Source of the DNA: Janibacter indicus | GTDB taxonomy: Bacteria > Actinomycetota > Actinomycetes > Actinomycetales > Dermatophilaceae | NCBI RefSeq assembly: GCF_900176385.1 | Contig: NZ_FWXN01000002.1 | Location: 248,001 to 312,000 of the forward strand | Length of the DNA stretch: 64,000 nucleotides | Reading direction: 5' to 3' | In this document: piece after piece, positions 28,330-50,892 of the stretch | Layout of the letters: every line of letters begins with the position of its first letter | Position numbering within the stretch: the stretch's first letter is position 1 | Translations under genes and position numbers: made by a program | Notes under the pieces: generated by a model | Database searches by the model: none | What the model saw: the letters and a program-made list of their open reading frames with translations, nothing else | What the model was told of the DNA's origin: nothing

Positions 28330-29990
28330 CGGGCCACCTCCGGCTGGCGCAGGGCGAGGTGCGCGTCGGCGCGGGCGACGAGATCGCTCTGGTGGGTCAC
28401 CGCGATGACGGTGCGGGTGCGGGCGAGGCGCTCGACGACCTCGCCGATCGTCGCGGCAGAGTCGGCGTCGACGTGGGCGGTGACCTCGTCGAGGAGGACG
28501 ACGGCCTCGGGGGAGAGGAGGGCCCGTGCCAGGACCAGCCGGGCACGCTGACCGGCCGACAGGCCGAAGCCGTCGTCGCCGATCCGCGTGTCGAGCCCGT
28601 CGGGCAGCCCGGCGACGGTGCCGTCGAGGCCGACCTCGCGCAGCGCCTCCCACAGGTCGTGGGACTCGTGCGGGCCGCCGATGGTGAGGTTGTCGCGCAG
28701 GGTCCCGGCGCCGAGGAAGGGGCGCTGGGTCACGAGGTGGACGAGTGGGGCGCTGACCCGGCCGCTGTCCGGTCGGCGGATGCCGGCGACGAGCTCGAGC
28801 AGCGTCGTCTTGCCGCAGCCGGACGGTCCGGTGACGACCGTGAGCCCGGGGCCGGCGACGAGGTCGACACCGGTGAGGGTCGCCCCCTTCGCCCCGGGGT
28901 GGGTGTAGTCGACCCCGGTGACGGTGACGACCTCCTCGGCCCCGCCCCCTTCACTCCGCATTGCCGTACGGCAATGCGGACTCGCGCCCCCTCCAGCCTG
29001 CATTGCCGTAGGGCAATGCGGACTGTCGAGCTCGGCGAGGATGGCGTCGAGGGCCGCGGCACCGTCGGCGGCGGAGTGGAACTCGGTCCCGACCCGTCGG
29101 ATCGGCCAGTAGGCCTCGGGCGCGAGGAGGATCGCAGTGAGCCCGACGAGCAGGTCCATCGAGCCGTGGGTCAGGCGCAGCCCGACGGCGACGGCGACGA
29201 TGGCGACCGAGATCGTCGCGAGCAGCTCCAGCGCCGCGGCCGACATGAAGGCCAGCCGCAGCGTGCGCATCGTGGCCCGTCGGTGCCGCTGGCTCACCTC
29301 GCCGATCGTGTCGACCTGCCGCTCGGCGCGGCCGTAGACCACGAGCGTCGGCAGCCCGCGCACGACGTCGAGGAAGTGCCCCGACAGGTCCGTCAGCGCG
29401 CCCCACCTGCGCTCGGTGTCCTCCTGCGTCGTCGCGCCGATGAGCGCCGCGAAGAGCGGGAGCAGCCACACCGTGCCGACGACGATCGCCGCGCTCGGCC
29501 AGTCGACGACGGCGAGGCAGGCGATGGCGAGCGCCGGCACGACCGCGGCGGAGACGAGGGCGGGCAGGTACTTCGCGACATAGGGCTCGACGGCGCTCGT
29601 GCCCTGCGTCGCGAGGGTGAGTGCCCGCGAGCGGCCCCGGACGAAGGGGGACTCCCCGGCCTCGTCCGTGACGTCACGCTGGTCCGTCGGTCGCCGTGAC
29701 CAGGCCGCGAGCAGCTGCTCGCGCAGCCCCGTCGCCACGGTGGCGCCGGCCCGCGCCGCCACCGTCTCGGAGAGCGCCCCGAGCACGGCACGGGCCGCGA
29801 AGAGCCCGCCGGTCCACAGCGCGGGCCCGGTGAGGTCGGACCCACGCACCACCGCGACGACGAGCGAGGCGAGGGCGAAGGCCGTCGCGATCGTCGCGAC
29901 GCCCTGCACGATGCCGATGCCGGCCAGCGCCGCCACCGGCCTGCGGGTGGCCGGGACCACCCGCAGGATGCGTGGGTCGAAGGGCCTCAT
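28326..29990 (-). CDS. cydD: Thiol reductant ABC exporter subunit CydD, with in-frame repeat insertion
   Basis: This 554-residue ABC half-transporter is the partner of CydC. The membrane domain spans about 1-300. The nucleotide-binding domain has VVTGPSGCGKTTLLELVAG, LSAGQRARLVLARALLS and AVVLLDEVTAHVD. Between the two domains, residues about 324-344 (DSPHCPTAMQAGGGASPHCR and onward) are encoded by a palindrome-pair repeat also found in four intergenic places. The frame is kept, so the linker is lengthened without obvious damage. The gene lies 1 bp after the cydB stop and overlaps cydC by 4 nt. Confidence 0.94.
   Translation of the reverse strand: MRPFDPRILRVVPATRRPVAALAGIGIVQGVATIATAFALASLVVAVVRGSDLTGPALWTGGLFAARAVLGALSETVAARAGATVATGLREQLLAAWSRRPTDQRDVTDEAGESPFVRGRSRALTLATQGTSAVEPYVAKYLPALVSAAVVPALAIACLAVVDWPSAAIVVGTVWLLPLFAALIGATTQEDTERRWGALTDLSGHFLDVVRGLPTLVVYGRAERQVDTIGEVSQRHRRATMRTLRLAFMSAAALELLATISVAIVAVAVGLRLTHGSMDLLVGLTAILLAPEAYWPIRRVGTEFHSAADGAAALDAILAELDSPHCPTAMQAGGGASPHCRTAMRSEGGGAEEVVTVTGVDYTHPGAKGATLTGVDLVAGPGLTVVTGPSGCGKTTLLELVAGIRRPDSGRVSAPLVHLVTQRPFLGAGTLRDNLTIGGPHESHDLWEALREVGLDGTVAGLPDGLDTRIGDDGFGLSAGQRARLVLARALLSPEAVVLLDEVTAHVDADSAATIGEVVERLARTRTVIAVTHQSDLVARADAHLALRQPEVAR
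28958..29019. repeat. Paired-palindrome element (family A), inside cydD
   Basis: Two 20-bp palindromes, GCATTGCCGTACGGCAATGC (28958-28977) and GCATTGCCGTAGGGCAATGC (29000-29019), are spaced 42 bp start to start. The 22-nt spacer differs from those of the intergenic copies. The copy is translated as part of the CydD interdomain linker. Confidence 0.92.
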
Positions 29991-29991
29991 G

Positions 29992-31116
29992 TCAGTGCGC
30001 CTCCGCGCCGGCCTGCTCGCGGACCGGCATGTGCTCGACGGACAGTCGACGGCGGAAGACCCAGTAGGTCCACACCGTGTAGGCGAGCATGATCGGCGTG
30101 AAGACGACGGCGGCCCACGTCATGATCGTCAGGGTCATCGGCGAGCTGGCCGCGGCCTCGAGGGTCAGGTCGGGGCTGTCGCCGCGACCGTTGATGGCAT
30201 TGGGCGTCAGCATGAGGAAGTAGGCGACGACCGTCAGGCCGATCGTCACGGAGGTGCCGACGAAGGCCCAGCCCTCCCTCCCCTTCGTGTTGGCGGCGAT
30301 GGCGGCGAGCAGCGCGACGGCGGCGAGGGCCATCGCGACCCACGCGGCGGTCGTGCCGCGCTGGGTGCCGAGCCAGACGAAGAGCGCGACGGCGAGCACC
30401 GCGGTGACCAGGCCGGCGCGGGTGGCGACCGACCGGGCCCGGGTGCGGATGTCGCCGGTGGTCTTCAGCGCGAGGAAGTGGGCGCCGTGCGTCAGGCAGG
30501 CGGCCGTGACGGTGAGGCCGCCGAGGATCGCGACCGGCGTGAGCAAGCTGAGCAGGTTGCCGTCGAACTCGGTGTAGGCCGTGCTGCCCATCATGTGCTC
30601 GGTCATCGGCAGGCCGGCGACGAGGTTGGTCAGGGCGACGCCGACGAGGAAGGGGGCGACGAAGGAGCCGGCGACGATCGCCAGGTCCCAGCGGCGCACC
30701 CACTCACGGTCGTGCCGCTTGTGCCGGTACTCCAGCCCCATGTTGCGCAGGATGAGCGTGACGAGCAGGAGCAGCAGCGCGAGGTACATGCCGGAGAACA
30801 TCGTCGCGTACCAGTGCGGGAAGGCGGCGAAGGTCGCGCCGCCCGCGGTGAGCAGCCACACCTCGTTGCCGTCCCAGTGGGGGCCGATGGTCGTGAGCAT
30901 CGTGCGCCGCCGCGTCTCCCGCTCCTCGCCTCCCTTGTCGCCCCCACGTTGATCGAGGTGCGAGGCCGTCCGCGGCCGAGCCTCGAGATCGCCGGCGCCG
31001 GAACCCTTGTCGAGCACGGGCAGGAGCATCCCGACACCGAAGTCGAAGCCCTCGGTGACGAGGTAACCGGTCCACAGGACCGCCAGCAGGACGAACCAGA
31101 TGGTGATGAGATCCAT
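29992..31116 (-). CDS. cydB: Cytochrome bd ubiquinol/menaquinol oxidase subunit II, with in-frame repeat insertion
   Basis: This 374-residue integral membrane protein has EGFDFGVGMLLPVL, TIGPHWDGNEVWLLTAGGATFAAFPHWYA and the later FRRRL end, all typical of CydB. Residues about 43-58 (DLEARPRTASHLDQRG) come from a palindromic repeat found elsewhere in the window and lengthen the loop between helices 1 and 2. CydB stabilises CydA and its haems. It is 14 nt after cydA and 1 nt before cydD. ATG at 31116 is the start, since the open frame upstream lies inside cydA. Confidence 0.94.
   Translation of the reverse strand: MDLITIWFVLLAVLWTGYLVTEGFDFGVGMLLPVLDKGSGAGDLEARPRTASHLDQRGGDKGGEERETRRRTMLTTIGPHWDGNEVWLLTAGGATFAAFPHWYATMFSGMYLALLLLLVTLILRNMGLEYRHKRHDREWVRRWDLAIVAGSFVAPFLVGVALTNLVAGLPMTEHMMGSTAYTEFDGNLLSLLTPVAILGGLTVTAACLTHGAHFLALKTTGDIRTRARSVATRAGLVTAVLAVALFVWLGTQRGTTAAWVAMALAAVALLAAIAANTKGREGWAFVGTSVTIGLTVVAYFLMLTPNAINGRGDSPDLTLEAAASSPMTLTIMTWAAVVFTPIMLAYTVWTYWVFRRRLSVEHMPVREQAGAEAH
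30947..30990. repeat. Palindromic element, family B, inside cydB
   Basis: The copy runs GTTGATCGAGGTGCGAGG, a short middle, then GAGCCTCGAGATC. It is nearly the same as the intergenic copy at 5463-5508. It is read in frame in the first extramembrane loop of CydB. Confidence 0.88.
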
Positions 31117-31130
31117 GTCAGTGCTCCCGG

Positions 31131-32570
31131 TCAGTAGGCGAACTCGAGCGGCTGGTCGTCCTCGACGAGACGTGGCTGCTCGAAGGGCTCGGCGCCCTTG
31201 CGGATGTAGGCGAGGAGGAGGCGGACCTCGACGACGGCCAGGCCTCCGTAGAGCAGGGTGAAGACGATCATCGACGTCCACACGTCGGCGGCACCGACCG
31301 AAGGGGAGACGGCGGTGTGCGTGGCCATCTCGCCGAAGACGACCCACGGCTGGCGCCCGACCTCGGTGAAGATCCAGCCGAAGCTGTGCCCGAGGACGGT
31401 GGCGATCGGGGTGAGCACGATGATCGGGAAGACCCAGCGCTGCATCGGCACGCGGTCCTTGCGCGTGGCCCACAGCGCCCAGGCGCCGACGGCCATGGCG
31501 AAGAAGCCGGTGGTCATCATCAGGCGGAAGTTCCAGTAGGTCATGGCGATCGGCGGGATGTAGGTCTCGGCCTGCGTCAGCTCGTCGTCGCCGAAGCTCT
31601 CGCGGTACTCGGCCTCGAGGTCGGCGATGCCCCGGACCTCACCGTCGAAGCTCCCGGTGCCGAGGAAGGAGAGCAGGCACGGGATCTCGATGACGTGCTT
31701 GGGGTCCTCGCCGCCGAGGCCGGCGACGGTCAGGACGGAGAAGGGCGCGCACTCGCCCTCGGGCGGGGTGTCGTAGAGGGCTTCTGCCGCGGCCATCTTC
31801 ATCGGCTGGACCTCGGTCATGACCTTGCCCTGGAGGTCGCCACTGATCGCCACGCCGAGGCCGCCGAGCAGGACGACGACGGCACCGAGCCGCGCCGCGT
31901 GTCGGTACATCCTGCGGTCGGCGTCGGGTCCCCCCTTCGTCACGGTCCGGCGCAGCTTGTGCAGCCCCACGGCCATGACCAGGGCGCCGCCGACGAGGTA
32001 GCAGGCGGTGATGACGTGGGGGAAGGCGACGAGCTGGACCTCGTTGGTGAGGATCGCGACGAAGTCGGCCATCTCGGCCCGACCGGTCTCGGGGTTGATC
32101 CGGTAGCCGACGGGGTGCTGCATGAAGGAGTTGGCCGCAAGGATGAAGTACGCCGACAGCAGGGTGCCGACGTGCACGATCCACATGCAGGCCGCGTGCA
32201 GACGCTCGGGGATGCGGCCCCAGCCGAAGATCCACAGGCCGAGGAAGGTCGACTCGAGGAAGAAGGCGAGTAGCGCCTCGAGGGCTAACGGCGCGCCGAA
32301 GATGTCACCGACGAAGCGGCTGTAGCTGCTCCAGTTCATCCCGAACTGGAACTCCTGGACGATGCCGGTGACCAGGCCGAGGGCGAAGTTGATCGTGAAG
32401 AGCTTGCCGAGGAACTTCGCCATCCGCAGGTGGCCCTCGTCGCGCGTGCGGATCCACCGCGAGTGGTACCAGGCGACGATCGCGGACAGCCCGATCGTGA
32501 TCGGCACGAAGAAGAAGTGGTAGACGGTGGTGATCGCGAACTGCCACCGTGCGAGGTCGAGGACGTCCAT
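31131..32570 (-). CDS. cydA: Cytochrome bd oxidase subunit I
   Basis: This 479-residue membrane protein holds three haems. His18 in TTVYHFFFVPITIGL is the haem ligand near the N-terminus. LALEALLAFFLESTFLGLW, FPHVITACYLVGGA, MTYWNFRLMMTTGF and GWIFTEVGRQPWVVFGE are the other conserved blocks. It oxidises menaquinol and reduces oxygen with high affinity. It is the first gene of cydABDC, with ATG at 32570 preceded by GAAGGAACC. A perfect inverted repeat lies just upstream. Confidence 0.96.
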   Translation of the reverse strand: MDVLDLARWQFAITTVYHFFFVPITIGLSAIVAWYHSRWIRTRDEGHLRMAKFLGKLFTINFALGLVTGIVQEFQFGMNWSSYSRFVGDIFGAPLALEALLAFFLESTFLGLWIFGWGRIPERLHAACMWIVHVGTLLSAYFILAANSFMQHPVGYRINPETGRAEMADFVAILTNEVQLVAFPHVITACYLVGGALVMAVGLHKLRRTVTKGGPDADRRMYRHAARLGAVVVLLGGLGVAISGDLQGKVMTEVQPMKMAAAEALYDTPPEGECAPFSVLTVAGLGGEDPKHVIEIPCLLSFLGTGSFDGEVRGIADLEAEYRESFGDDELTQAETYIPPIAMTYWNFRLMMTTGFFAMAVGAWALWATRKDRVPMQRWVFPIIVLTPIATVLGHSFGWIFTEVGRQPWVVFGEMATHTAVSPSVGAADVWTSMIVFTLLYGGLAVVEVRLLLAYIRKGAEPFEQPRLVEDDQPLEFAY

Positions 32571-32581
32571 CCAGGTTCCTT

Positions 32582-32615
32582 CTACTACGTCGATGAATAC
32601 GACATGACGTAGTAG
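32582..32615. promoter_or_regulatory. Inverted repeat before cydA, candidate operator
   Basis: CTACTACGTC and GACGTAGTAG are perfect 10-bp arms around a 14-nt centre, and GTCG/CGAC form an inner pair. The repeat lies 12-45 nt before the cydA ATG, so it overlaps the probable transcription start or leader. It does not match the Rex consensus. Confidence 0.5.
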
Positions 32616-32632
32616 ATGCTACCCCCCTCGCC

Positions 32633-32854
32633 GGTCGAGGTGCGACGAAGGAGCCTCGAGACCTCCAGTCCGCTGGTCTGGGTCCCACGCTCCGCGTGGG
32701 CGGTGCGACGAAGGAGCCTCGAGGCCTCCAGTCCGTTGGTCTGGGTCCCACGCTCCGCGTGGGCGGTGCGACGAAGGAGCCTCGAGACCTCCAGTCCGTT
32801 GGTCTGGGGTCCCACGCTCCGCGTGGGCGGTGCGACGAAGGAGCCTCGAGACCC
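32633..32854. repeat. Tandem repeat array between phoD and cydA
   Basis: Units beginning TGCGACGAAGGAGCCTCGAG start at 32641, 32704, 32767 and 32831, a period of 63-64 bp. Each contains TCCAGTCCG, GGTCTGGGTCCCACGCTCCG and CGTGGGCGG; CCCACGCTCCGCGTGGG is itself a hairpin. The flanks carry GGTCGAGG and CTCGAGACC as in family B. I see no gene in the 419-bp gap 32571-32989 other than this array and the cydA operator. Confidence 0.9.
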
Positions 32855-32989
32855 GGACGGACGAAGGGAGACCCCGCCGCCCGCCGAAGTCCCTGCGTCC
32901 CCGGGACGCTCACGTCGTCGCGACGGACTTCGGCTTGATGTGCGGCGAGGCCTCCCTTCGCCCGCTCCCCACGGCTCACCCCTTGCGAC

Positions 32990-34570: not shown

Positions 34571-34593
34571 GACCTGCAGCCTGTCGACGCCGG

Positions 34594-34676
34594 GTGAACC
34601 CAGCAGCCCCCCTTCGTGAACCAGCCTGCCCTGCAACGTGGTCCACGCATGAAGGTCCGGTCAGGCAATGGTCAGG
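34594..34676 (-). promoter_or_regulatory. Candidate PHO boxes upstream of phoD
   Basis: On the minus strand GTTCAC occurs at 34621-34616 and 34599-34594, exactly 22 bp (two 11-bp units) apart. CCTGACC occurs twice, 11 bp apart, at 34659-34676. Actinobacterial PhoP boxes are 11-bp direct repeats beginning GTTCACC, so phoD is plausibly induced by phosphate starvation. Confidence 0.4.
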
Positions 34677-34712
34677 GTTGTCCCCGCCGTTGGTCGAGCC
34701 GTCCCCCTTCCG

Positions 34713-34894
34713 CTGGTCGAGGTGCGAGCTTGCGAGCCGTCCCCCTTGCGCTGGTCGAGGTGCGAGCTTGCGAGCCGTCCCCCTTCCGCTGGTCGAGGTG
34801 CGAGCTTGCGAGCCGTCCTTTCCGCTGGTCGAGGTGCGAGCTTGCGAGCCGTCCTTTCCGCTGGTCGAGGTGCGAGCTTGCGAGCCTCGAGACC
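34713..34894. repeat. Tandem repeat array between the MFS gene and phoD
   Basis: Five copies of CTGGTCGAGGTGCGAGCTTG followed by CGAGCC start at 34713, 34751, 34789, 34825 and 34861, spaced 38, 38, 36 and 36 bp. The array ends in CGAGCCTCGAGACC, the right arm of family B, so it looks like expansion of one family B arm. The 326-bp gap 34571-34896 holds only this array and the PHO-box candidates. Confidence 0.92.
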
Positions 34895-34896
34895 CC

Positions 34897-36168: not shown

Positions 36169-36177
36169 CGCGTCACC

Positions 36178-37416: not shown

Positions 37417-37454
37417 GGCTCGCTCCTCACCCGACGGCGGGGGGAGCGGGAGGG

Positions 37455-37518: not shown

Positions 37519-37533
37519 GCAAAGGAGCGGATC

Positions 37534-39357: not shown

Positions 39358-39376
39358 GCCTCGCCGAGGCGGTCGC

Positions 39377-40179
<803 letters not shown>

Positions 40180-40183
<4 letters not shown>

Positions 40184-42089: not shown

Positions 42090-42211
42090 GGTGGATCCTC
42101 CATCGAGCAGGGGGGCACTGGGTGCGTGCCCGGTGCCGGACATGGTGCCACCGCGGTGGTCGCGGCGGGGACTGCCCCGCCGCGACCTTGACCGTCTCGT
42201 GACTCTGCCCC

Positions 42212-42257
42212 GCTCCCTGAGGAGCGAGGCCGCCTGCGGCCGAGGGTCTCGAAGGGC
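42212..42257. repeat. Dispersed repeat, family C copy, between two genes
   Basis: CGCTCCCTGAGGAGCGAGGC leads into GGCCGCCTGCGGCCGAGGG (an internal hairpin) and ends TCTCGAAGGG. The outer blocks are shared with 19993-20032. The copy overlaps the region after the vWA gene stop and may act as its terminator. Confidence 0.5.
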
Positions 42258-42261
42258 GGGG

Positions 42262-44034
42262 TCAGCTGCGGCGGGCGAGCAGCGCCTGGACGAAGACCCG
42301 CTCGATGTCGTCGGGCGTCTCGGCGATGTAGCTCGTGCCGCCGGTCTCGTCGGCGATCTTCTGCAGGGCCGTGGGGTTGGCCTCGCCCATGCCGATGGTG
42401 ATGACCCGGACCGGTCGCTTCGGGTCGTAGGACGTGTCGAGCTTGCTCAGCAGCTGGTTGAGCGAGAGGCCGCCGTTGGGGTCGTCGTTCTCGCCGTCGG
42501 TGAAGACGACGATCGAGTTGACGTAGTCGTCGTCGTAGTCCTTGACCATCTGCTGGTGGGCGGCCCAGATCGAGTCGTAGAGCGCGGTGTCGCCCTCGAC
42601 GAGCTTGTCGCTGCCCGCGACGATCCGCTTGAGCCGGTCGCGGTGGGAGCCGGAGCCGGCGGCGGCGTCGAGCCGCTTGACCGGGGCGAGCTCCTCGTAG
42701 TCCTTGCCCTTGCTGCGGCCGCTGCTGAAGACCCACGCGCCGACCTGGCTGCCGGCGGGGAGCATGTCGGCGCCCTGGGTGAGCGCCCCCTTCGTCACGT
42801 CCCACCGGGTCTCGCCGGGCGTGGGGCTGTCCCACTTCATCGAGCCGGAGGCGTCGACGAGCGCGAGCATGCGCATGTCCGTGCGCATGACGTCCCACTG
42901 CTCGACGGCGGAGATCCGCTCGTTGCGGTCGAGCGGCTCGAGCTCGGTGAGCTTCGGCGGGGTGGCACCGTCGATCTCGGGGCCGCCCTGTCCGTTGGAG
43001 TCGCGGAAGCCGGCCTCGGTGAGGGCCTCGCGCACCTCGAGCGAGCCCAGCTCGGTGCGGGCCCGGTCGGCGGTCTTGAGCTCGTCGCCGGCGAGCTCGG
43101 GGTTGGTGATCCACGGGTAGTCCAGCGTCAACGTCCCCTTCTTCGGCATCACCGCGCGAAGGGGGGAGGCGTCACCGTTGTCGGCGTTCCACGCGGCGAT
43201 CTGCTGCTCGGAGGCGGGGAAGGGCTGGGTCTTGCTCGGGTCGGCGGCGTAGTCGTCGAGGAGCTTGTCGATCGAGGGGGCGGCGAAGCGCGACATGAAG
43301 ATCAGTCGCTTGCCGGTGTCGAGACCGATCCGGCCGGGCTGCCCGATGCGGCTGGCGTGGAAGGCCAGACGGCTCGCGGTGTCGGAGTCGGGGTTGGCCA
43401 TGCGCAGGCCGCCGTCCTGGTTGAGCAGCGAGGACCACGAGGTGAAGCCGGTGCGGTTGTCCTTCTGCTCGTCGCTCGTCGCGAGGACGACGGGGGAGGA
43501 GGCGATCGACTGGCCCTCGAGCCACTGGCCCGTGCTCTTGCCCGGGTCGACCGCGTCGATCCAGGTCGAGCTGTCGGGGATCCAGACATCGGGGGCGGTG
43601 CCATCGTTGATGCCCTGGGCGGCGTCGGCGGCCGAGGTGGCCGAGACGTCGAAGTTGGCGCACTCGTCCTGCTCGCGCACCTTGTCCAGGGCGTCCTCGA
43701 GCGCATCGGCGATCTCGGGGGTCGCGGCGACGGTGAGGGCGTCGCCGCCGCACGCGCTGTCGTCACCGCCGCGGCCGAAGGCCGCGAAGGCGCCACCGCC
43801 GCACAGGGCCAGCACGAGCAGGGCAGCGATCGGCAGCAGCCAGCGCTTGCGCTTGCTCGCGGCCTCGTCCCGGCGACGGGAGTGCCTCGACGGGGCGGGC
43901 TCGTCCCCCTTCGTCGGGGTCGCCGCAGCGGTGCTCCCGGCTGCGGCCGAGGTGTCGGCTGGGCCCGAGGTGGTGCCGAGGTCGTCGTCCTCGTCCCAGA
44001 GGTCGTGCCGTCGTCCGGGGCGGCCGTCGCTCAT
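42262..44034 (-). CDS. Membrane-anchored substrate-binding-like / von Willebrand factor A protein
   Basis: In this 590-residue protein, a disordered cytoplasmic start is followed by one transmembrane helix (WLLPIAALLVLALCGGGAFA). An extracellular-solute-binding-like domain follows (about 90-320; PDVWIPDSSTWIDAVD, SPVVLATSDEQ). A C-terminal vWA domain then has the metal site LALVDASGSM and VVFTDGENDDPNGG. It may be a surface or cell-wall-associated binding protein. ATG at 44034 is chosen because GGAGGAGA lies 7 nt upstream; ATGs at 44052 and 44049 overlap that site. No MoxR or other vWA operon partner is present. Confidence 0.85.
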   Translation of the reverse strand: MSDGRPGRRHDLWDEDDDLGTTSGPADTSAAAGSTAAATPTKGDEPAPSRHSRRRDEAASKRKRWLLPIAALLVLALCGGGAFAAFGRGGDDSACGGDALTVAATPEIADALEDALDKVREQDECANFDVSATSAADAAQGINDGTAPDVWIPDSSTWIDAVDPGKSTGQWLEGQSIASSPVVLATSDEQKDNRTGFTSWSSLLNQDGGLRMANPDSDTASRLAFHASRIGQPGRIGLDTGKRLIFMSRFAAPSIDKLLDDYAADPSKTQPFPASEQQIAAWNADNGDASPLRAVMPKKGTLTLDYPWITNPELAGDELKTADRARTELGSLEVREALTEAGFRDSNGQGGPEIDGATPPKLTELEPLDRNERISAVEQWDVMRTDMRMLALVDASGSMKWDSPTPGETRWDVTKGALTQGADMLPAGSQVGAWVFSSGRSKGKDYEELAPVKRLDAAAGSGSHRDRLKRIVAGSDKLVEGDTALYDSIWAAHQQMVKDYDDDYVNSIVVFTDGENDDPNGGLSLNQLLSKLDTSYDPKRPVRVITIGMGEANPTALQKIADETGGTSYIAETPDDIERVFVQALLARRS

Positions 44035-44162
44035 CCGTCTCTCCTCCATCACCGGTGCTCCCTCGCTACCGGCCGGTCAAGTATGACCCACTAGGGGACC
44101 ACAGCCGCCGCCCGTCGGGCGGGTCCTGTGCCCATGGTCACGTGTGCTGCCATGCTGGGCCC

Positions 44163-44561
44163 ATGACCAACTTCCTCATCCGGACCGGCGTCAACGCCGT
44201 GGCGCTGTGGGTCGCCGCGTGGCTCATCGACGGGATCCACCTGGCCGACGGTGACGCGACCTTCGCCTCGAAGTTCGCGACCATCGTGCTCGTTGCGCTG
44301 ATCTTCGGTGTCGTCAACGCGGTCGTGAAGCCGATCGCCAAGGTGCTGACCTTCCCCTTCATCGTCCTGACGCTGGGGCTGTTCACCTTCGTGGTCAACG
44401 CCTTCCTGCTCCAGCTCACCGAGTGGATCTCCTCGCCGCTGGGCCTGGACTTCGAGATCACCGAGTTCTGGTGGGACGCGGTCATCGGTGCCCTCGTCAT
44501 CACGATCGTCTCGATGATCCTCAACTGGGTCCTGCCGGAGAAGGAAGACCTCGACCGCTGA
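44163..44561 (+). CDS. Phage-holin-like (family 4) membrane protein
   Basis: This 132-residue protein has four membrane helices, with VVNAVVKPIAKVLTFPFIVL and TLGLFTFVVNAFLLQLTEWI typical of the widely conserved family named phage holin family 4. In chromosomes it is a housekeeping membrane protein of unknown role, and no prophage genes are near. ATG at 44163 is used. Confidence 0.85.
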   Translation: MTNFLIRTGVNAVALWVAAWLIDGIHLADGDATFASKFATIVLVALIFGVVNAVVKPIAKVLTFPFIVLTLGLFTFVVNAFLLQLTEWISSPLGLDFEITEFWWDAVIGALVITIVSMILNWVLPEKEDLDR

Positions 44562-44573
44562 CCCCCGGACTCT

Positions 44574-44635
44574 GCATTGCCCTACGGCAATGCACTCTCT
44601 CGAGATCAAGACTCTGCATTGCCGTAGGGCAATGC
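44574..44635. repeat. Paired-palindrome element (family A)
   Basis: GCATTGCCCTACGGCAATGC (44574-44593) and GCATTGCCGTAGGGCAATGC (44616-44635) are reverse complements of one another, spaced 42 bp start to start. The spacer is ACTCTCTCGAGATCAAGACTCT-like. It lies just after the holin-like gene and may end its transcript. Confidence 0.93.
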
Positions 44636-44711
44636 AGAGTTGGCGGGGCTCAACCAGCCTCACTGTGGATAACTCCGGGACTCGGGTCGGTGATTCGACC
44701 AACGTGGTCGC

Positions 44712-45650
44712 ATGGCACCCGTCATCGCGCGACACGTCGACCTCTCCGCCTTCCGCGGCCTCCCGCTCTTCACGACCGAGCAGGCCCGTGAGGCGCGGAT
44801 CTCCGGGCACGACCTGACCGCCCTCATCCGTCGCGAGCAGGTCTGGCGCGTCGCGCCCGGTTGGTACTCCTGCCTGGTGGACGCGACCGATGACGAGCGG
44901 CACGTCCTGAGGACGGTCGCCCGGTTGCGGCTCCTCGGGGAGGGGGCAGCCGCGTGCCGCGTCTCGGCGGCCCTGTTGCTCGGTCTGCCGATCGCCCGGT
45001 GCGATCTGGCCACCGTGGAGATCGCGACTGCCGGTTCTGGTCACGGCCGGACCCGCACGGGAGTGCGCGTCAGCGAGTACGCGGCGAAGGGGGGAGCCTG
45101 CCGTGACGTCGACGTCCCCTTGGTGGGCGGCGCGGTGCGCGTCGTGGACCCCGCGACGGCGATCGTCGGGATGGCCGCGATCAACAGCGCGCCGGGCGCC
45201 CTCGTGGCCGCGGACTTCGCCGTGGCCCAGGGTATGTGCACCGTGGAGGACATCGCGGCGTCGCTGAAGGCGCACGCGGGATCCACGGGCATCGACCGTG
45301 CACGAGCGTGGCTGGCGGACATCGATCCGCGCCACGAGTCGGCGGGCGAGACCCTCACCGCGGTGATCCTGCGGCAAGGGTCCTGGGAGTTCGAGCCGCA
45401 GCTGTGGGTGCGTGCGGGCGGCCGCAGGTTCCGGCTGGACTTCGCGCTGCGTGAGTACAAGGTCGCCATCGAGTTCGACGGCGAGGGCAAGTACACCGGC
45501 CCCGAGGTGATGGTGGACCAGCTGGCGCGGCAGGCGGCCCTCGAGGCCGAAGGGTGGGTCTTCGTGCGACTGGGCTGGGCCGACCTGGACGACCCCTCGA
45601 CGATCCTGCGGCGGATCGCCGAAGCCGTCGCTGTGGCCGAGGCCCGCTGA
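44712..45650 (+). CDS. AbiEi-like N-terminal / DUF559 nuclease-like protein
   Basis: In this 312-residue protein the N-terminal part (about 15-75, LFTTEQAREARISGHDLTAL then WRVAPGWYSC) resembles the winged helix of AbiEi-type antitoxins. The C-terminal part (FRLDFALREYKVAIEFDGEG, then QAALEAEGWVFVRLGWADL) resembles DUF559, a Vsr/PD-(D/E)xK nuclease-like fold. This fusion is common in actinobacteria, and its function is not known. No AbiEii toxin gene is adjacent. It is flanked on both sides by family A repeats. There is no clear Shine-Dalgarno, so it may be leaderless. Confidence 0.82.
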   Translation: MAPVIARHVDLSAFRGLPLFTTEQAREARISGHDLTALIRREQVWRVAPGWYSCLVDATDDERHVLRTVARLRLLGEGAAACRVSAALLLGLPIARCDLATVEIATAGSGHGRTRTGVRVSEYAAKGGACRDVDVPLVGGAVRVVDPATAIVGMAAINSAPGALVAADFAVAQGMCTVEDIAASLKAHAGSTGIDRARAWLADIDPRHESAGETLTAVILRQGSWEFEPQLWVRAGGRRFRLDFALREYKVAIEFDGEGKYTGPEVMVDQLARQAALEAEGWVFVRLGWADLDDPSTILRRIAEAVAVAEAR

Positions 45651-45674
45651 CCTCCCCTTCGCCCGGGTGAGACT

Positions 45675-45736
45675 GCATTGCCCTACGGCAATGCAGAGGC
45701 TTGACGTCGAGAGGTTGCATTGCCGTAGGGCAATGC
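45675..45736. repeat. Paired-palindrome element (family A)
   Basis: Cores at 45675-45694 and 45717-45736 are spaced 42 bp. The spacer contains CTTGACGTCGAGAG, close to the reverse complement of the spacer at 50650. It lies between two convergent genes. Confidence 0.93.
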
Positions 45737-45750
45737 AGAGTCCACGGGTG

Positions 45751-46830
45751 TCAGGAAGCGGCGCGCAGGAACTCCCGGGCCACCTCGATGAGTCGGTCGT
45801 TGGCCTCGGTCTCGCCGATCGTCACCCGCACGCCGTCGCTGCCGTAGGGGCGCACCGACAGGCCCGCCTCGGTGCACGCCGCGACGAAGTCGGCCGTGCG
45901 CTCGCCGAGCGGGAACCACACGAAGTTGGCCTGGCTCGGCGTCATCTGCCAGCCCGCCTCGGCGAGGGCGGCGAGCACCCGCTCGCGCTCGGCGACGATC
46001 TCCTTGACCCGCACGTCGAGCTCGTCCTTCGCCTCGAGGGAGGCGATCGCCGCGGCCTGGGCGATGAGGTTGACGCCGAAGGGGGTCGCGGTCTTGCGCA
46101 GCGCCTCGGCCACCGGCTCCGGCGCGACGGCGTAGCCGACCCGCAGCCCGGCGAGGCCGTAGGCCTTGGAAAAGGTGCGCAGGAGCATGACATTGCCGTG
46201 CTCGCGGCGAAGGGAGAGGCCGTCGACCTCCCCTTCGCCCTCGACGAACTCGAGGTAGGCCTCGTCGACGACGACGAGGACGTCGCGGGGCACCTTGGCG
46301 AGGAAGGCCTCGAGCTCGGCGTGGGTCACCGATGTGCCGGTCGGGTTGTTGGGGGTGCACACGAGCACGACGCGGGTGCGGTCGGTGATCGCGGCGGCCA
46401 TCGCGTCGAGGTCGTGGCGCTGGTCGTCGGTCAGCGGCACCTGGACCGACACGGCGCCGGCGATCGCCACGACGATCGGGTAGGCCTCGAAGGAGCGCCA
46501 CGCGTAGACGACCTCGTCGCCCGGGTCGCACGTGGACTGGATGATCTGCGCGAGCACGCCCACCGACCCGGTGCCGGTCGCGAGCTGCTCGCGCGGCACG
46601 TCGAGGTGCGCGGCGAGGGCGTCGGTGAGGGCCGTGACGCCCATGTCGGGGTAGCGGTTGACCCCTTCAGCCGCCTCGCGGATGACCTCCACGACCGAAG
46701 GGAGAGGAGGGTGCGGGTTTTCGTTGGAGGAGACCTTGTAGACCGTCACTCCGTCACGCGGGGCAGGCGGTTTGCCGGCCACGTAGGCGGGGACCTGGTC
46801 GAGGGCGGAGCGCAGCCGCGGGGTGTCCAT
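45751..46830 (-). CDS. Histidinol-phosphate / aromatic aminotransferase
   Basis: This 359-residue class I/II PLP enzyme has [14 protein letters not shown] near the start and [11 protein letters not shown]. The PLP lysine lies in [19 protein letters not shown], and [15 protein letters not shown] near the end. It matches the HisC/Pat family, which makes histidinol phosphate or aromatic amino acids. Because it stands apart from any his operon and next to branched-chain keto-acid genes, an aromatic aminotransferase (Pat) is as likely as HisC. It is divergent from the bkd operon. Confidence 0.88.
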
Positions 46831-46919
46831 GCGCGCACCCTAGCCCCCCTCGCGCAGTGGGTCGGGACCGGTTTGGGCGTCCACCTGTTGAGACGCTAGG
46901 TTGGCCCCAGCCAGTGAAC

Positions 46920-46935
46920 TGTGGCTCGGGTCACA
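46920..46935. promoter_or_regulatory. CRP/GlxR-like site upstream of the bkd operon
   Basis: TGTG-GCTCGGGT-CACA matches the TGTG-N8-CACA pattern of CRP-family sites in actinobacteria. It lies 89-104 nt before the bkdA start, just downstream of a candidate promoter (TTGGGC-N18-TAGGTT, 46873-46902). Confidence 0.4.
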
Positions 46936-47023
46936 AGCCCGCCGCAGCCGACCGGGGCGTCGACGTCGACGCCCCCAGTGCCGCGGACGGGCGACCCCCG
47001 GGCCGGGCCGAAGGGAGCACACC

Positions 47024-48265
47024 GTGAGCGACAGCGACGTCGCCGGCCACGCCGGCACCCGAGGACACGTGGCGGGGGCCTTCGAGCCCTCGCCCGAGAT
47101 GGGGCCGACGCCACCGTCCCAGATCACCGGGCACTTCTCCGACGACAACCCCGAGATGGTCCAGTTCGTCGACGCCGAGGGCACCCGCCTGGAGACCAAT
47201 CCGACCAACGCGCCCTACGCCCAGATCGTCGAGGACATGACGAGCGAGGACGCGCGCACCATCTACCGCGACCTCGTCCTCGTGCGCCGCATCGACGCCG
47301 AGGGCTTCGCCCTCCAGCGTCAGGGCGAGCTCGGCCTGTGGCCGAGCCTCTTCGGCCAGGAGGCCGCGCAGGTCGGGGCCGGCCGCGCGCTGCGCCCCCA
47401 CGACTACGCCTTCCCCGGCTACCGTGAGCACGGTGTCGCCTGGTGCCGCGGCGTCGACCCGGTGAGCCTCTTCGGGATGTTCCGCGGGGTTAACCACGGC
47501 GGGTGGGACTCCAACGAAAAGAACTTCCACCTCTACACGATCGTCATCGGCAACCAGATGCTCCACGCGGTCGGCTACGCCATGGGCATCACGGCCGACG
47601 GGGCCATGGGCACCGGGGACCCGGAGCGCGACAGCGCCGTCATGGCTTTCACCGGTGACGGCGGCACGAGCCAGGGCGACTTCAACGAGGCGCTCGTCTT
47701 CGCGGCCGTGACCAACGCCCCGGTCGTGTTCTTCGTGCAGAACAACCAGTGGGCGATCTCCGAGCCCAACGACAAGCAGTTCATCATCCCGCCCTACCAG
47801 CGGGCCCGCGGCTTCGGCTTCCCCGGCGTGCTCGTCGACGGCAACGACCCGCTGGCCACCTATGCCGTCGCCAAGGACGCGCTCGACAAGGCGCGCAGCG
47901 GTCAGGGCCCGACGCTCATCGAGGCCTACACCTACCGGATGGGCGCGCACACGACCTCCGACGACCCGACGAAGTACCGCAGCGACGCCGAGGTCGAGAT
48001 CTGGAAGCACAAGGACCCGATCAAGCGCATGCGCGGCTTCATGACCGAGCGTGGCCACGCCGACCAGGCCTTCTTCGACGCGGTCGACGCCGAGGCCGGG
48101 CAGGTCGCCGAGCGCATCCGCACGGCCTGCCAGGAGATGCCCGACCCGGAGCTGCCGACGATGTTCGACCACCAGTACACCGAGCCGCACCCCGTCGTCG
48201 ACGCCGAGCGCGAGGAGTTCCTCGCCTACCACGCCGGCTTCGCCGAGGAAGGAGACGCCCGATGA
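47024..48265 (+). CDS. bkdA: Branched-chain 2-oxoacid dehydrogenase E1 alpha subunit
   Basis: This 413-residue thiamine-diphosphate enzyme subunit has the ThDP motif AFTGDGGTSQGDFNEAL and ends with FFVQNNQWAIS. RMGAHTTSDDPTKYR is characteristic of E1 alpha of branched-chain or related 2-oxoacid dehydrogenases. With E1 beta it decarboxylates the keto acids of Val, Leu and Ile, feeding branched fatty-acid primers. The GTG at 47024 follows GAAGGGAGCACACC. A pyruvate dehydrogenase role for the same architecture cannot be excluded. Confidence 0.9.
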   Translation: MSDSDVAGHAGTRGHVAGAFEPSPEMGPTPPSQITGHFSDDNPEMVQFVDAEGTRLETNPTNAPYAQIVEDMTSEDARTIYRDLVLVRRIDAEGFALQRQGELGLWPSLFGQEAAQVGAGRALRPHDYAFPGYREHGVAWCRGVDPVSLFGMFRGVNHGGWDSNEKNFHLYTIVIGNQMLHAVGYAMGITADGAMGTGDPERDSAVMAFTGDGGTSQGDFNEALVFAAVTNAPVVFFVQNNQWAISEPNDKQFIIPPYQRARGFGFPGVLVDGNDPLATYAVAKDALDKARSGQGPTLIEAYTYRMGAHTTSDDPTKYRSDAEVEIWKHKDPIKRMRGFMTERGHADQAFFDAVDAEAGQVAERIRTACQEMPDPELPTMFDHQYTEPHPVVDAEREEFLAYHAGFAEEGDAR

Positions 48266-49251
48266 GCGGCCAGCGCCTCTCTCTCGCCAAGGGCCTCAAC
48301 GCCGGCCTGCGCAAGGCCATGGACAAGGACCCCAAGGTCGTCCTCATGGGCGAGGACGTCGGCAAGCTCGGCGGCGTCTTCCGCATCACCGAGGGCCTGC
48401 AGAAGGACTTCGGCGAGCACCGGGTCCTCGACACCCCGCTCGCCGAGTCCGGCATCGTCGGCACCGCCGTCGGTCTGGCGCTGCGTGGCTACCGGCCCGT
48501 CGTCGAGATCCAGTTCGACGGCTTCGTCTACCCGGCCTTCGACCAGATCGTCAGCCAAGTCGCCAAGATGCACGCGCGTTCCCTCGGTCACCTCAGGGTG
48601 CCGATGGTCATCCGCATCCCCTGCGGCGGCGGCATCGGTGCGGTCGAGCACCACAGCGAGTCCAACGAGGCCTACTTCGCGCACACCGCCGGCCTGCGGG
48701 TCGTCTCGTGCAGCAATGCGGCCGATGCCTACTGGATGATCCAGCAGGCCATCGAGACCGACGACCCGGTGATCTTCTTCGAGCCCAAGCGCCGCTACCA
48801 CGAGCGCGGCGAGACCGAGATCGACGAAGGGGGTGCCCCCGACCTCGGTCTCTACGACGCCCGCGTGGTCCGGGAGGGTCGTGACGCGACGCTCCTGTGC
48901 TACGGCCCGATGGTCAAGACCTGCCTGCAGGCGGCCGAGGCCGCGCGCGAGGAGGGCCGCGACCTCGAGGTCGTCGACCTGCGCTCGCTCAGCCCGCTGG
49001 ACCTGCCGACGATCACCGACTCGGTGAAGAAGACCGGTCGCGCCGTCATCGTCCACGAGGCGCAGACCTTCGTCGGGCTGGGTGCGGAGATCGCCGCCCG
49101 GGTCCAGGAGGAGTGCTTCTACCATCTCGAGGCGCCGGTGCTGCGGGTCGGTGGCTACAACATCCCCTACCCGCCCAGCCGCTTCGAGGAGGAGTTCCTC
49201 CCGACCCTCGACCGGGTCCTCGACGCCGTCGACCGCTCGCTCGCGCACTGA
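48262..49251 (+). CDS. bkdB: Branched-chain 2-oxoacid dehydrogenase E1 beta subunit
   Basis: This 329-residue subunit has LMGEDVGKLGGVFRITEGL, DTPLAESGIVGTAVGLAL, RPVVEIQFDGFVYPAFDQIV and GGIGAVEHHSESNEAYFAHT. These are the conserved blocks of E1 beta that form the ThDP site with E1 alpha. The ATG overlaps the bkdA stop (ATGA), so the two subunits are made together. The E2 gene follows after 11 nt. Confidence 0.93.
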   Translation: MSGQRLSLAKGLNAGLRKAMDKDPKVVLMGEDVGKLGGVFRITEGLQKDFGEHRVLDTPLAESGIVGTAVGLALRGYRPVVEIQFDGFVYPAFDQIVSQVAKMHARSLGHLRVPMVIRIPCGGGIGAVEHHSESNEAYFAHTAGLRVVSCSNAADAYWMIQQAIETDDPVIFFEPKRRYHERGETEIDEGGAPDLGLYDARVVREGRDATLLCYGPMVKTCLQAAEAAREEGRDLEVVDLRSLSPLDLPTITDSVKKTGRAVIVHEAQTFVGLGAEIAARVQEECFYHLEAPVLRVGGYNIPYPPSRFEEEFLPTLDRVLDAVDRSLAH

Positions 49252-49262
49252 CAGGAGTCCCC

Positions 49263-50615
49263 GTGGCCGTCAAGAAGTTCAACCTGCCCGACCCCGGCGA
49301 GGGCCTCACCGAGGCCGAGGTGACGACCTGGAAGGTCAAGGTCGGCGACACCGTCGCCATCAACGACATCGTCATCGAGGTCGAGACCGCCAAGTCGCTC
49401 GTCGAGCTGCCCATCCCCTTCGCCGGCACCGTCGTCGAGCTGCTCGTCGCCGAGGGCGACACCGTCGACGTCGGCGCCCCGATCATCACCGTGGAGGTCG
49501 CCGGCGTCGACCCGGAGCCGGCGGCTCCCGAGGCCGGTGAGGCGGAGGAGGCCTCCGGCCCCAACCTCGTCGGCTACGGCGCCAAGGCCGGCAGCACCCG
49601 ACGTCGTGCCCGCAAGGGCGGCGCCGACGCGGCACCCCCGGTCCCTGAGGAGGCGCGCCAGCGCCGTCTCGATGGGTCGGCCCCGGCGCAGCCGCTCACG
49701 GGCGCGCAGACCCGCGCCCTGGCCAAGCCGCCGGTGCGCAAGCTCGCCAAGGACCTCGGCGTCGACCTGCAGTCGGTGGCCCCCACGGGCGAAGGCGGCA
49801 TCGTCACCCGCGCGGACGTCGAGGGTGCGTCGACGGCGTCGGCCGCCCCGGTCGCCGAGGCCCACGTCCAGCGGCCGCAGCATCTCGCGGGGACGCCCGT
49901 CGACGAGGTGCGCATCCCGATCAAGGGCGTGCGCAAGGCGACGGCGGAGGCGATGGTCGCCTCGGCCTTCACCGCCCCGCACGTCACCGAGTTCGTCACC
50001 GTCGACGTCACCGCGATGATGGAGATGGTCGACCGACTCAAGCGCGACCGGGCCTTCGCCGACGTCAAGGTCACGCCGCTGCTGCTCGTCGCCAAGGCCT
50101 TCTGCCTGGCGCTGCGGCGGCACGGCGAGGCCAATGCGAGCTGGGACCAGTCCGCCCAGGAGATCGTCCTGCACCCGCAGGTCAACCTCGGCGTCGCCGC
50201 GGCGACCCCGCGCGGGCTGCTCGTGCCCAACATCAAGGGGGCCGACGGACTCTCGCTGCACGACCTGGCCGCCGCGCTCGGCGACCTCGTCGCGACGGCC
50301 CGAGAGGGCCGCACGCCGCCAGCCGACCTGTCCGGCGGCACCGCGACGATCACCAATGTCGGCGTCTTCGGCGTCGACACCGGCACCCCGATCCTCAACC
50401 CCGGCGAGGCCGCGATCCTCGCCTTGGGGGCCGTGCGGCGCATGCCGTGGGTCGTCACCGCCGCCGACGGCAGCGAATCGATCGAGCCGCGCTGGGTCAC
50501 CCAGCTCGCGCTCTCCTTCGACCACCGGCTGATCGACGGCGAGCTCGGCTCCAAGCTGCTCGCCGACGTCGGTGCCCTGCTCCACGACCCGGGCACGGCC
50601 TTCCTCTGGGCCTGA
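49263..50615 (+). CDS. bkdC: Dihydrolipoyl acyltransferase E2 of the branched-chain complex
   Basis: This 450-residue protein has an N-terminal lipoyl domain with Lys44 in EVETAKSLVELP. A linker and a peripheral-subunit-binding domain follow (about 150-190, KPPVRKLAKDLGVDLQSVAP). The C-terminal catalytic domain ends in LSFDHRLIDGELGSKLL, which has the active His and Asp. It transfers the acyl group from E1 to coenzyme A. The E3 gene is not in the window and is presumably shared. GTG at 49263 follows CAGGAGTCCCC. Confidence 0.93.
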   Translation: MAVKKFNLPDPGEGLTEAEVTTWKVKVGDTVAINDIVIEVETAKSLVELPIPFAGTVVELLVAEGDTVDVGAPIITVEVAGVDPEPAAPEAGEAEEASGPNLVGYGAKAGSTRRRARKGGADAAPPVPEEARQRRLDGSAPAQPLTGAQTRALAKPPVRKLAKDLGVDLQSVAPTGEGGIVTRADVEGASTASAAPVAEAHVQRPQHLAGTPVDEVRIPIKGVRKATAEAMVASAFTAPHVTEFVTVDVTAMMEMVDRLKRDRAFADVKVTPLLLVAKAFCLALRRHGEANASWDQSAQEIVLHPQVNLGVAAATPRGLLVPNIKGADGLSLHDLAAALGDLVATAREGRTPPADLSGGTATITNVGVFGVDTGTPILNPGEAAILALGAVRRMPWVVTAADGSESIEPRWVTQLALSFDHRLIDGELGSKLLADVGALLHDPGTAFLWA

Positions 50616-50629
50616 CCTGCGTGGACTCT

Positions 50630-50691
50630 GCATTGCCCTACGGCAATGCAATCTCTCGACGTCAAGGCTCTGCATTGCCGTAGGGCAATGC
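50630..50691. repeat. Paired-palindrome element (family A)
   Basis: Cores at 50630-50649 and 50672-50691 are spaced 42 bp. This copy and the one at 50831 differ at only one base over about 75 bp, including the flank CGTGGACTCT, so one is a recent duplicate of the other. Confidence 0.95.
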
Positions 50692-50704
50692 AGTCCTGCT
50701 CGGG

Positions 50705-50750
50705 CGAAGGGAGGGCCCCGCCGGCGACAACCGGCGGGGCCCTCCCTTCG
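50705..50750. terminator. Strong hairpin terminator after bkdC
   Basis: CGAAGGGAGGGCCCCGCCGG and its exact complement enclose the loop CGACAA, giving a 20-bp perfect stem. The stem ends are the CGAAGGG heptamer. It sits between two copies of the family A repeat. Confidence 0.8.
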
Positions 50751-50830
50751 TCATGGGCGGCGCCAAGACAGGCAGGCGGACTCGAGGTGGCCCGAGAGCC
50801 CGCCCCGCAGGCTCCTCACCCGTGGACTCT

Positions 50831-50892
50831 GCATTGCCCTACGGCAATGCAATCTCTCGACGTCAAGACTCTGCATTGCCGTAGGGCAATGC
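50831..50892. repeat. Paired-palindrome element (family A), near-identical neighbour copy
   Basis: Cores at 50831-50850 and 50873-50892 are spaced 42 bp. It ends 14 nt before the stop of the minus-strand serine hydrolase gene, so it is in that gene's 3' end region. Confidence 0.95.

What the first reader, a model, noticed from the sequence alone, without database searches (positions are those of the whole stretch)
28958..50892. Paired 20-bp palindromes with fixed 42-bp spacing, five copies, one inside cydD
The element consists of two 20-bp palindromes (consensus GCATTGCCSTASGGCAATGC) whose starts are exactly 42 bp apart in every copy: 28958/29000, 44574/44616, 45675/45717, 50630/50672 and 50831/50873. 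The 22-nt spacers vary, so the geometry is conserved more than the sequence. Four copies are intergenic and one is translated in CydD between the membrane and ATPase domains. The layout recalls REP/BIME pairs and, for the coding copy, Rickettsia-type palindromic elements. A fixed spacing suggests a dimeric protein or a folded RNA/DNA intermediate as the agent of spread.
Basis: seen in the sequence. Interest (0 to 1): 0.82.

Follow-up and report, generated by a model that had tools for sequence, protein, structure and literature searches.

The report
Palindrome arrays paired with nuclease gene
A bacterium's genome carries dozens of short mirror-image DNA sequences spaced by whole turns of the helix, and the same sequences flank a small DNA-cutting-enzyme gene, which suggests a gene-and-repeat partnership not described in the papers searched.

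Summary
In detail: ten 20-bp palindromes form five pairs at exactly 42 bp in the window. Genome-wide (Janibacter; 124 palindromes) the spacing is not fixed at 42. It falls on whole helical turns: 31-32 and 41-42 bp, occasionally 52 or 62-64. Of 97 arrays from 8 species, 90 lie within 1.5 bp of a multiple of 10.5. Species have their own palindrome 'dialects'; in this genome most copies sit just 3' of genes. No Y1/RAYT transposase domain was found in any of 16 Janibacter genomes.

The likely partner is inside the window. Gene 44712-45650 encodes an AbiEi-like DNA-binding region fused to a Vsr/DUF559-type endonuclease and has a palindrome pair on each side. Of 28 Janibacter homologues scored, 24 have a shared flanking repeat, against 7 of 361 control genes. 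Divergent paralogues have different palindromes. Two such pairings replicate independently: one in a second Janibacter paralogue, one in another class of the phylum.

Best reading: a REP/RAYT-like gene-repeat partnership built on an unrelated nuclease. The pairing is shown statistically; binding, cutting and mobility are inferred. No clean insertion footprint was found.

The parts
28958..29019 (.). palindrome pair (28958-28977, 29000-29019; 42 bp), translated in-frame inside cydD (reverse strand gene 28326-29990)
44574..44635 (.). palindrome pair upstream of the nuclease gene (44574-44593, 44616-44635; 42 bp), inverted CTAC...GTAG
44712..45650 (+). AbiEi-like N-terminal region + Vsr/DUF559/MTES_1575-type endonuclease gene, 312 aa; proposed cognate trans factor
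   Evidence: Pfam, PADLOC AbiEi profiles in 22 of 24 aligned members, catalytic-type residues invariant, flank test
45675..45736 (.). palindrome pair downstream of the nuclease gene (45675-45694, 45717-45736; 42 bp)
50630..50691 (.). palindrome pair (50630-50649, 50672-50691; 42 bp), 14 bp after the stop of the 2-oxoacid dehydrogenase acyltransferase gene
50831..50892 (.). palindrome pair (50831-50850, 50873-50892; 42 bp), 14 bp from the 3' end of the convergent gene 50907-52877

Best explanation
The palindromes are the cognate DNA sites of a small protein family that joins an AbiEi-like winged-helix DNA-binding region to a Vsr/DUF559-type endonuclease. Each gene of the family tends to travel with its own palindrome type on both sides, and for successful types further copies without the gene are scattered over the genome. 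I propose that the protein binds palindromes as dimers lying side by side on one face of the helix, hence arrays at 3, 4 or 6 turns, and nicks or cuts there. Repair then copies, duplicates or replaces the elements. The result works like a REP/RAYT pair but uses an unrelated enzyme. SHOWN: quantised spacing; species dialects; gene flanked by its own dialect; enrichment over controls; replication with other paralogues. INFERRED: binding of these palindromes by this protein, cleavage, and nuclease-driven spread.
For: (a) Flank test: 24 of 28 scored Janibacter family genes have an up/downstream shared repeat with score >=16, against 7 of 361 control genes; of those 7, two are family genes and two are neighbours sharing the palindromes (coordinates); Fisher p 4e-28. 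The 28 include orthologues, so they are not fully independent. (b) Shared flank pieces score higher as hairpins than the mean gene-body piece in 20 of 22, and above 95% of such pieces in 16 of 22. (c) In G000, G004, G006, G007, G008 and G010 the dialect on both sides of the gene is also found elsewhere in the genome; in G012 it is on one side only. (d) A second paralogue's palindrome, taken from its flanks, lies at 14 places in G011 (2 flank the gene) and 3 in G008 (2 flank the gene) at up to 1 mismatch. (e) Outside the genus 8 of 20 family genes are repeat-flanked against 0 of 380 swapped flanks; in G370 that repeat recurs at 14 further places with no family gene in the fetched stretch. (f) Spacing: 90 of 97 arrays within 1.5 bp of n x 10.5, mean phase 0.03 bp. 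(g) Invariant D243, E254, D256, K260 in 24 of 24; an AbiEi profile in 22 of 24. (h) Published: AbiEi binds two inverted repeats and autoregulates (PMC3985639, passages); a DUF559 Vsr-like protein triggers the SOS response in Caulobacter cells lacking a methylase (PMC12907096, listing abstract and passages). (i) The hisC/holin-like/nuclease block has four arrangements among seven gene-bearing species, with palindromes at one to three of its junctions in each.
Against: No empty/filled pair showed a clean insertion or target duplication. G011 has 110 matches to the relaxed main-family pattern, but its best homologue of the window gene is only 36% identical and is flanked by another palindrome; its contig ends near the expected place, so absence is not proven. 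In 4 of 28 Janibacter genes (G012, G013b, G007b, G015) and 12 of 20 outside the genus the flank test failed. The window protein scores below Pfam's curated cut-offs, the structure model is poor (mean pLDDT 41.6), and PDB matches are weak (E 0.017 and 0.12). Spacing in G010 is looser (30-32, 40-44, 55). Array members do not show flank covariation. In 6 of 22 shared flank pieces the hairpin score is not exceptional.
Confidence: 0.66

Rival explanations
1. Host-functional hairpins: bidirectional transcription terminators or mRNA 3' stabilisers kept by selection and spread by ordinary recombination; the nuclease gene merely sits among them.
For: 25 of 39 intergenic clusters in G000 lie between convergent genes (46 of 198 gaps in the same loci are convergent, those with clusters included; p 1e-6); 14 of 26 in G008 (46 of 239 gaps; p 2e-4). 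Median distance to a gene 3' end 16 bp over 62 distances. One orthologous pair has symmetric arm changes between G000 and G008 (L041); the 13 single copies show flank pairing (3 of 2000 shuffles as high).
Against: RNA hairpins need no 10.5-bp spacing rule. Identical 20-mers at about 100 sites with species dialects require copying. The convergent bias is weak elsewhere: 3 of 11 arrays in G012, 2 of 6 in G006. It does not explain the 24 of 28 nuclease flanks or G370.
Confidence: 0.13
2. Homing variant: the palindromes are the nuclease's target or landing sites and the gene homes into existing arrays; the palindromes themselves spread by another route.
For: Nuclease weakly resembles a 'mobile intron protein' (3r3p, E 0.12); 1 of 24 members matches a homing-endonuclease profile; DUF559 genes have been assigned to the EDxHD homing family (PMC9403480, one passage); the closest homologues in G013 and G001 sit at other loci.
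Against: Paralogues have their own palindromes, and where checked the dispersed dialect matches the gene's, so palindromes and gene change together.
Confidence: 0.12
3. Operators only: an AbiEi-like autoregulator with a genome-wide regulon; no cutting or mobility.
For: AbiEi binds paired inverted repeats (PMC3985639, passages); an upstream pair lies 76 bp before the start codon; phasing suits cooperative repressor binding.
Against: Sites avoid promoters in G000: 2 of 39 intergenic clusters are between divergent genes; 24 of 28 homologues share the repeat up- and downstream; catalytic-type residues invariant.
Confidence: 0.06
4. Classical REP/BIME moved by a RAYT, or MITEs of an unseen insertion sequence.
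For: Copy number, 3' location and inverted pairs match published REPs (PMC3733652, abstract and passages).
Against: PF01797 in 0 of 16 Janibacter genomes while it is found in 5 of 14 control genomes; comparison of 192 genes near the G000 clusters showed no recurrent family that looks like a transposase (not scanned with Pfam); no terminal duplications seen.
Confidence: 0.03

Closest known systems
REP / REPIN / BIME elements with RAYT (TnpA-REP) transposases
   Same: Short palindromes, >100 copies, at 3' ends and between convergent genes, often in inverted pairs or clusters, some in genes; a gene flanked by its own palindromes (PMC3733652: abstract and passages; PMC2817692: passages).
   Different: No Y1 HUH transposase domain found; no GTAG/CGTC tag at the stem foot; spacing quantised at helical turns; the paired gene is an AbiEi-Vsr-like nuclease.
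CGTC-tagged REPs (no dedicated transposase known)
   Same: Palindromic repeats without a RAYT (PMC3733652 abstract).
   Different: Different sequence; here a candidate enzyme is identified.
AbiE type IV toxin-antitoxin systems (AbiEi)
   Same: AbiEi-like region about residues 19-191; AbiEi binds paired inverted repeats (PMC3985639, passages).
   Different: Nuclease domain fused at the C-terminus; the window neighbours are a holin-like protein and an aminotransferase, no AbiEii toxin; sites dispersed.
Vsr-like / EDxHD homing endonucleases (I-Bth0305I as the type: recalled)
   Same: Weak match of the C-terminal domain to 3r3p, 'mobile intron protein'; a DUF559 gene assigned to the EDxHD family in PMC9403480 (one passage).
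   Different: Free-standing gene between palindrome arrays, dispersed palindromes; no intron or intein context was looked for.
Rickettsia palindromic elements (recalled, not tested)
   Same: One copy translated in frame in a coding gene.
   Different: In G000 most clusters are intergenic or at gene ends; the CydD linker also varies in 8 of 14 relatives.

Membership tests
REP/RAYT | Y1 (HUH) RAYT transposase in genomes with the repeat | tested here: not met
   PF01797: 0 of 16 Janibacter genomes, 2 of 58 genomes in all (both other genera of the order); control rings in 5 of 14
REP/RAYT | GTAG or CGTC unpaired tag at the foot of the hairpin | tested here: not met
   Judged by eye: in G000 GTAG/CTAC is the palindrome's centre and other dialects have CTAG, CCGG or TTAA there; no common foot tag
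REP/RAYT | high copy number, 3' and convergent location, inverted pairs | tested here: met
   G000 and G008; weaker convergent bias in G006 and G012
REP/RAYT | gene flanked by its own palindromes | tested here: met
   but with a different gene: 24 of 28 against 7 of 361 controls
AbiE type IV toxin-antitoxin | AbiEi-type DNA-binding region | tested here: met
   a PADLOC AbiEi profile in 22 of 24 members at E<=0.01; Pfam AbiEi_4 in 12 of 24 at E<=0.001, window protein only E 0.059
AbiE type IV toxin-antitoxin | adjacent AbiEii nucleotidyltransferase toxin | tested here: not met
   window neighbours are PF04020 and an aminotransferase; neighbours in other genomes not scanned with Pfam
Vsr/DUF559-type endonuclease | conserved acidic catalytic-type residues and domain match | tested here: met
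   D243, E254, D256, K260 invariant in 24 of 24; MTES_1575 in 15 and DUF559 in 12 of 24 at E<=0.001; window protein itself below curated cut-off
Vsr/DUF559-type endonuclease | DNA cleavage | not testable with these tools
   -
MITE / insertion-sequence derivative | target site duplication or clean empty site | tested here: inconclusive
   14 rows of orthologous comparison G000/G008 and 5 of G008/window: intergenic DNA too diverged or replaced
Homing endonuclease | cuts the allele that lacks the gene; gene copied in by repair | not testable with these tools
   -

The most novel reading that the evidence does not exclude
A phylum-wide class of selfish gene-repeat pairs in Actinomycetota. Each AbiEi-Vsr-like nuclease paralogue recognises its own hairpin-forming palindrome, carries it on both sides, and spreads gene-less copies, in Janibacter as helically phased arrays. 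The nuclease's changing specificity drives turnover of palindrome dialects, local rearrangement, and new in-frame linkers in host proteins such as CydD. It would be a convergent counterpart of REP/RAYT with a different enzyme class.
Probability: 0.5. Interest if true: 0.92.

Novelty: categorically new. Interest (0 to 1): 0.85.

Why it matters
MTES_1575/DUF559-type genes are frequent in this phylum: 54 of 119 genomes have a PF18741 match (long multidomain proteins included) and five of them have 10 or more. The passages I read treat such proteins as Vsr-type nucleases: a fold prediction (PMC3710099), a DNA-damaging Caulobacter protein (PMC12907096), an EDxHD homing assignment (PMC9403480). None of these passages mentions dispersed palindromes. 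Pairing the genes with their own palindromes gives them a testable partner. It also supplies a candidate mechanism for REP-like repeats in genomes that lack RAYTs, and the 10.5-bp spacing makes a sharp biochemical prediction. Ten literature searches (open-licence PMC papers) listed no paper whose title or abstract start links this gene family with palindromic repeats. Most listed papers, including several that mention DUF559, were not opened, and subscription papers were not searchable.

Tried and rejected
RAYT: absent. Transposase beside the palindromes: all-against-all comparison of 192 genes near clusters in G000 gave no recurrent mobile-looking family; the largest, of 8, contains CydC and CydD. 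DNA uptake sequence: the window has 23 half-sites, of which 20 are in the palindromes, so half-sites are not scattered. Whole 62-bp pair as the moving unit: most 22-nt spacers look unrelated between loci, although tandem duplication with flank is visible at some loci. Clean insertion footprints: none found. Presence/absence correlation of the window gene with palindrome number: suggestive but imperfect (G011). Viral relatives: none confirmed among 52 pattern matches; plasmids: 2 records, half of the query each. Single-sequence structure prediction: too poor for a fold search, so none was run. The GCANNNNCCTAGGNNNNTGC core outside Janibacter: 0-1 per genome in the 248 genomes drawn from the order, two of them Janibacter, so related systems must be sought through the gene, not this sequence.

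Corrections and partial sets: an earlier count said 17 orthologous sites; one search printed 14 rows. One search found 60 matches and returned 30 loci; one search scored 28 of these (L205 lacked flank, L225 gave no match and was left out). One search aligned 24 and one search examined 25 of the 30. One search's 20 loci were picked by me from the list (open frame about 300-390 aa, one per genome, before seeing flanks), not at random. The 8 outside sequences are those that passed. The G370 repeat was chosen because L272 had the second-highest flank score. Palindromes beyond the first 100 listed rows were not studied. Orthologous arrays shared by species were not removed. In G370 the gene context of the dispersed copies was not called, and two of the 14 stretches (L276, L277) are cut by contig ends.
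Full report
WHAT IS IN THE WINDOW. One pair is translated in CydD between the membrane and ATPase domains. The other four are intergenic, 12, 14, 14 and 14 bp from the nearest gene 3' end. Four of the five 62-bp units are related in sequence, one of them inverted.

GENOME-WIDE. The genome (3.42 Mb, 29 contigs) has 124 palindromes at up to 2 mismatches, against 1 for the reversed control. Named contigs with 40-44-bp pairs are all Janibacter (J. sp. Soil728, J. terrae, J. anophelis; 14 of 14 stretches). In 51 clusters there are 13 singles, 30 pairs, 6 triplets and 2 quadruplets; spacings are 31-32 (22 of 48) and 41-42 (22 of 48), with 4 others. Flank preferences extend the unit to about 32 bp, so 32 bp can be read as head-to-tail abutment and 42 bp as a unit plus a 10-bp linker.

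DIALECTS. The exact NTAN-centre palindrome occurs in 7 of 58 genomes (own included), all Janibacter. A relaxed pattern is found in 12 of 16 Janibacter genomes, from 1 to 142 copies. Other species use other 20-mers with GCA...TGC ends: GCARRACCCTAGGGTYYTGC (G008), GCATYTCCCCGGGGARATGC (G011), GCATTTCCCTAGGGAAATGC (G004), GCACGACCTTAAGGAGATGC (G012), GCAGGAGCCTAAGCAGTTGC (G006). Without prior patterns, the commonest dispersed intergenic 14-mer in the stretches of G006, G008 and G012 is the local dialect; in G010 it ties with two other 14-mers. A CCTAGG-core pattern is 0-1 per genome in 248 genomes drawn from the order.

PHASING. Over 150 spacings from 8 species, 142 lie within 1.5 bp of a multiple of 10.5. 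Counting one spacing per array, 90 of 97 do (about 28 expected), with mean phase 0.03 bp. Resultant length is 0.87, against at most 0.35 in 20,000 uniform draws. The evidence rests mostly on the 3-turn and 4-turn classes, with few 5- or 6-turn cases, and orthologous arrays were not removed. RNA folding does not predict this; proteins on one face of the duplex do.

TURNOVER. Between G000 and G008, one array is inherited unchanged with an older CAAC centre (L039). At L038 the second palindrome has the G000 dialect in one species and the G008 dialect in the other at the same 42-bp offset. At L041 the arms changed symmetrically. In G011 both dialects sit in the same arrays. In the CydD linker, relatives have dialect-specific repeats at 10- or 14-residue periods: four copies in G010, three in G012, three in G011, two in G008 and in G000. 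G002, G004, G006 and G013 have one palindrome-like segment by eye, and the other 6 of 14 relatives none. No clean insertion footprint was seen.

LOCATION. 25 of 39 intergenic clusters in G000 and 14 of 26 in G008 lie between convergent genes; p 1e-6 and 2e-4 against all gaps in the same sequence. In smaller samples the bias is weaker: G010 4 of 7, G006 2 of 6, G012 3 of 11 arrays, those inside predicted genes counted. Of the G000 clusters, 12 of 51 overlap a predicted gene, several only its 3' end. The layout matches published REPs (PMC3733652, abstract and passages), and could reflect tolerance as much as function.

NO RAYT. PF01797 was found in none of 16 Janibacter genomes and rings in 5 of 14 control genomes.

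THE PARTNER GENE. Gene 44712-45650 has a palindrome pair on each side. Its relatives in G004, G006, G007, G008 and G010 are flanked on both sides by the local dialect; G012 has it upstream only. All 16 genomes have 1-6 homologues. Several divergent paralogues are flanked by quite different hairpins, such as GCCACAGCACGTGGTGTGGC in G011 and GCCCACGACATACCGTGGGC in G006. A mechanical score of up/downstream sharing reaches 16 in 24 of 28 family genes and 7 of 361 control genes; of those 7, two are family genes and two are neighbours. The shared pieces score above the gene-body mean as hairpins in 20 of 22, and above 95% of gene-body pieces in 16 of 22.

REPLICATION. The GCCACAGCACGT palindrome, taken from the flanks of a paralogue, occurs at 14 places in G011, two beside the gene, and 3 in G008, two beside the gene; G010 has 3, G012 and G005 one each, the other 11 of 16 none. 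Outside the genus, 8 of 20 PF18741-type genes have shared flank repeats, against 0 of 380 swapped pairs. In G370, from another class, the flanking 79-bp four-half-site repeat recurs at 14 other places, with no family gene in the fetched stretches of up to about 1.5 kb on each side.

THE PROTEIN. Pfam finds MTES_1575 (15 of 24), AbiEi_4 (12 of 24) and DUF559 (12 of 24) among the aligned members. A PADLOC AbiEi profile matches 22 of 24, over residues 19-191 of the window protein. D243, E254, D256, G257 and K260 are invariant in 24 of 24. MTES_1575 was described as a Vsr-type nuclease fold (PMC3710099, passages). A DUF559 Vsr-like protein in Caulobacter triggers the SOS response in cells lacking a methylase (PMC12907096, passages), and a cyanobacterial DUF559 gene was assigned to the EDxHD homing family (PMC9403480, one passage). 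The window protein itself is below the curated cut-offs and the single-sequence model is poor. AbiEi is known to bind two inverted repeats and repress its own promoter (PMC3985639, passages). No AbiEii-like toxin is adjacent in the window.

REARRANGEMENT. The holin-like gene, nuclease gene and hisC lie in one block. Its order and orientation differ between G000/G004/G007, G008/G006, G010 and G012, with palindromes at one to three of the junctions in each species. Four genomes without the gene there (G001, G003, G005, G014) share one order; G013, also without it there, has hisC inverted. In four drafts (G002, G009, G011, G015) the contig ends there.

CONCLUSION. The pairing of nuclease gene and palindrome is well supported statistically. 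The step from pairing to binding, cutting and spreading is inference by analogy with RAYT/REP and AbiEi. It works like a REP/RAYT pair but fails that family's membership test. I rate it categorically new because the enzyme class and spacing rule differ from each known kind considered, while noting that mobility is not shown and that only open-licence papers were searched.

Noticed in passing
window 32622-32874 and 34695-34890: Two unrelated tandem repeat arrays (63-bp and 36-38-bp units) containing GAGGTGCGA/GCGGTGCGA-type sequence.
   Followed up: no
window 44574, 45675, 50630, 50831; L023, L031, L043, L057: A subset of spacers or flanks shares a TCTCGACGTCAAGACTCT-like core, itself near-palindromic, perhaps a sub-lineage that spread as a 62-bp pair or a regulator site (by eye).
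   Followed up: partly
window 42262-47024 and orthologous loci L096-L106: Repeated inversions and re-orderings of the holin-like/nuclease/hisC block between Janibacter species.
   Followed up: partly
L023:4015-4079: A variant pair GCATTCCCCCGGGGGAATGC at 45 bp inside a predicted gene of the same genome.
   Followed up: no
L125, L127 (G011:C1, C12): Two palindrome dialects stand in one 42-46-bp array.
   Followed up: partly
L107-L110 (G011, G009, G015, G002): Four draft assemblies break upstream of pdhA, next to where the nuclease locus lies in relatives.
   Followed up: no
window 50620-50760, L096-L106, L136-L155: CCCCCTTCG / CGAAGGGGG motifs recur at gene 3' ends in Janibacter (by eye).
   Followed up: no
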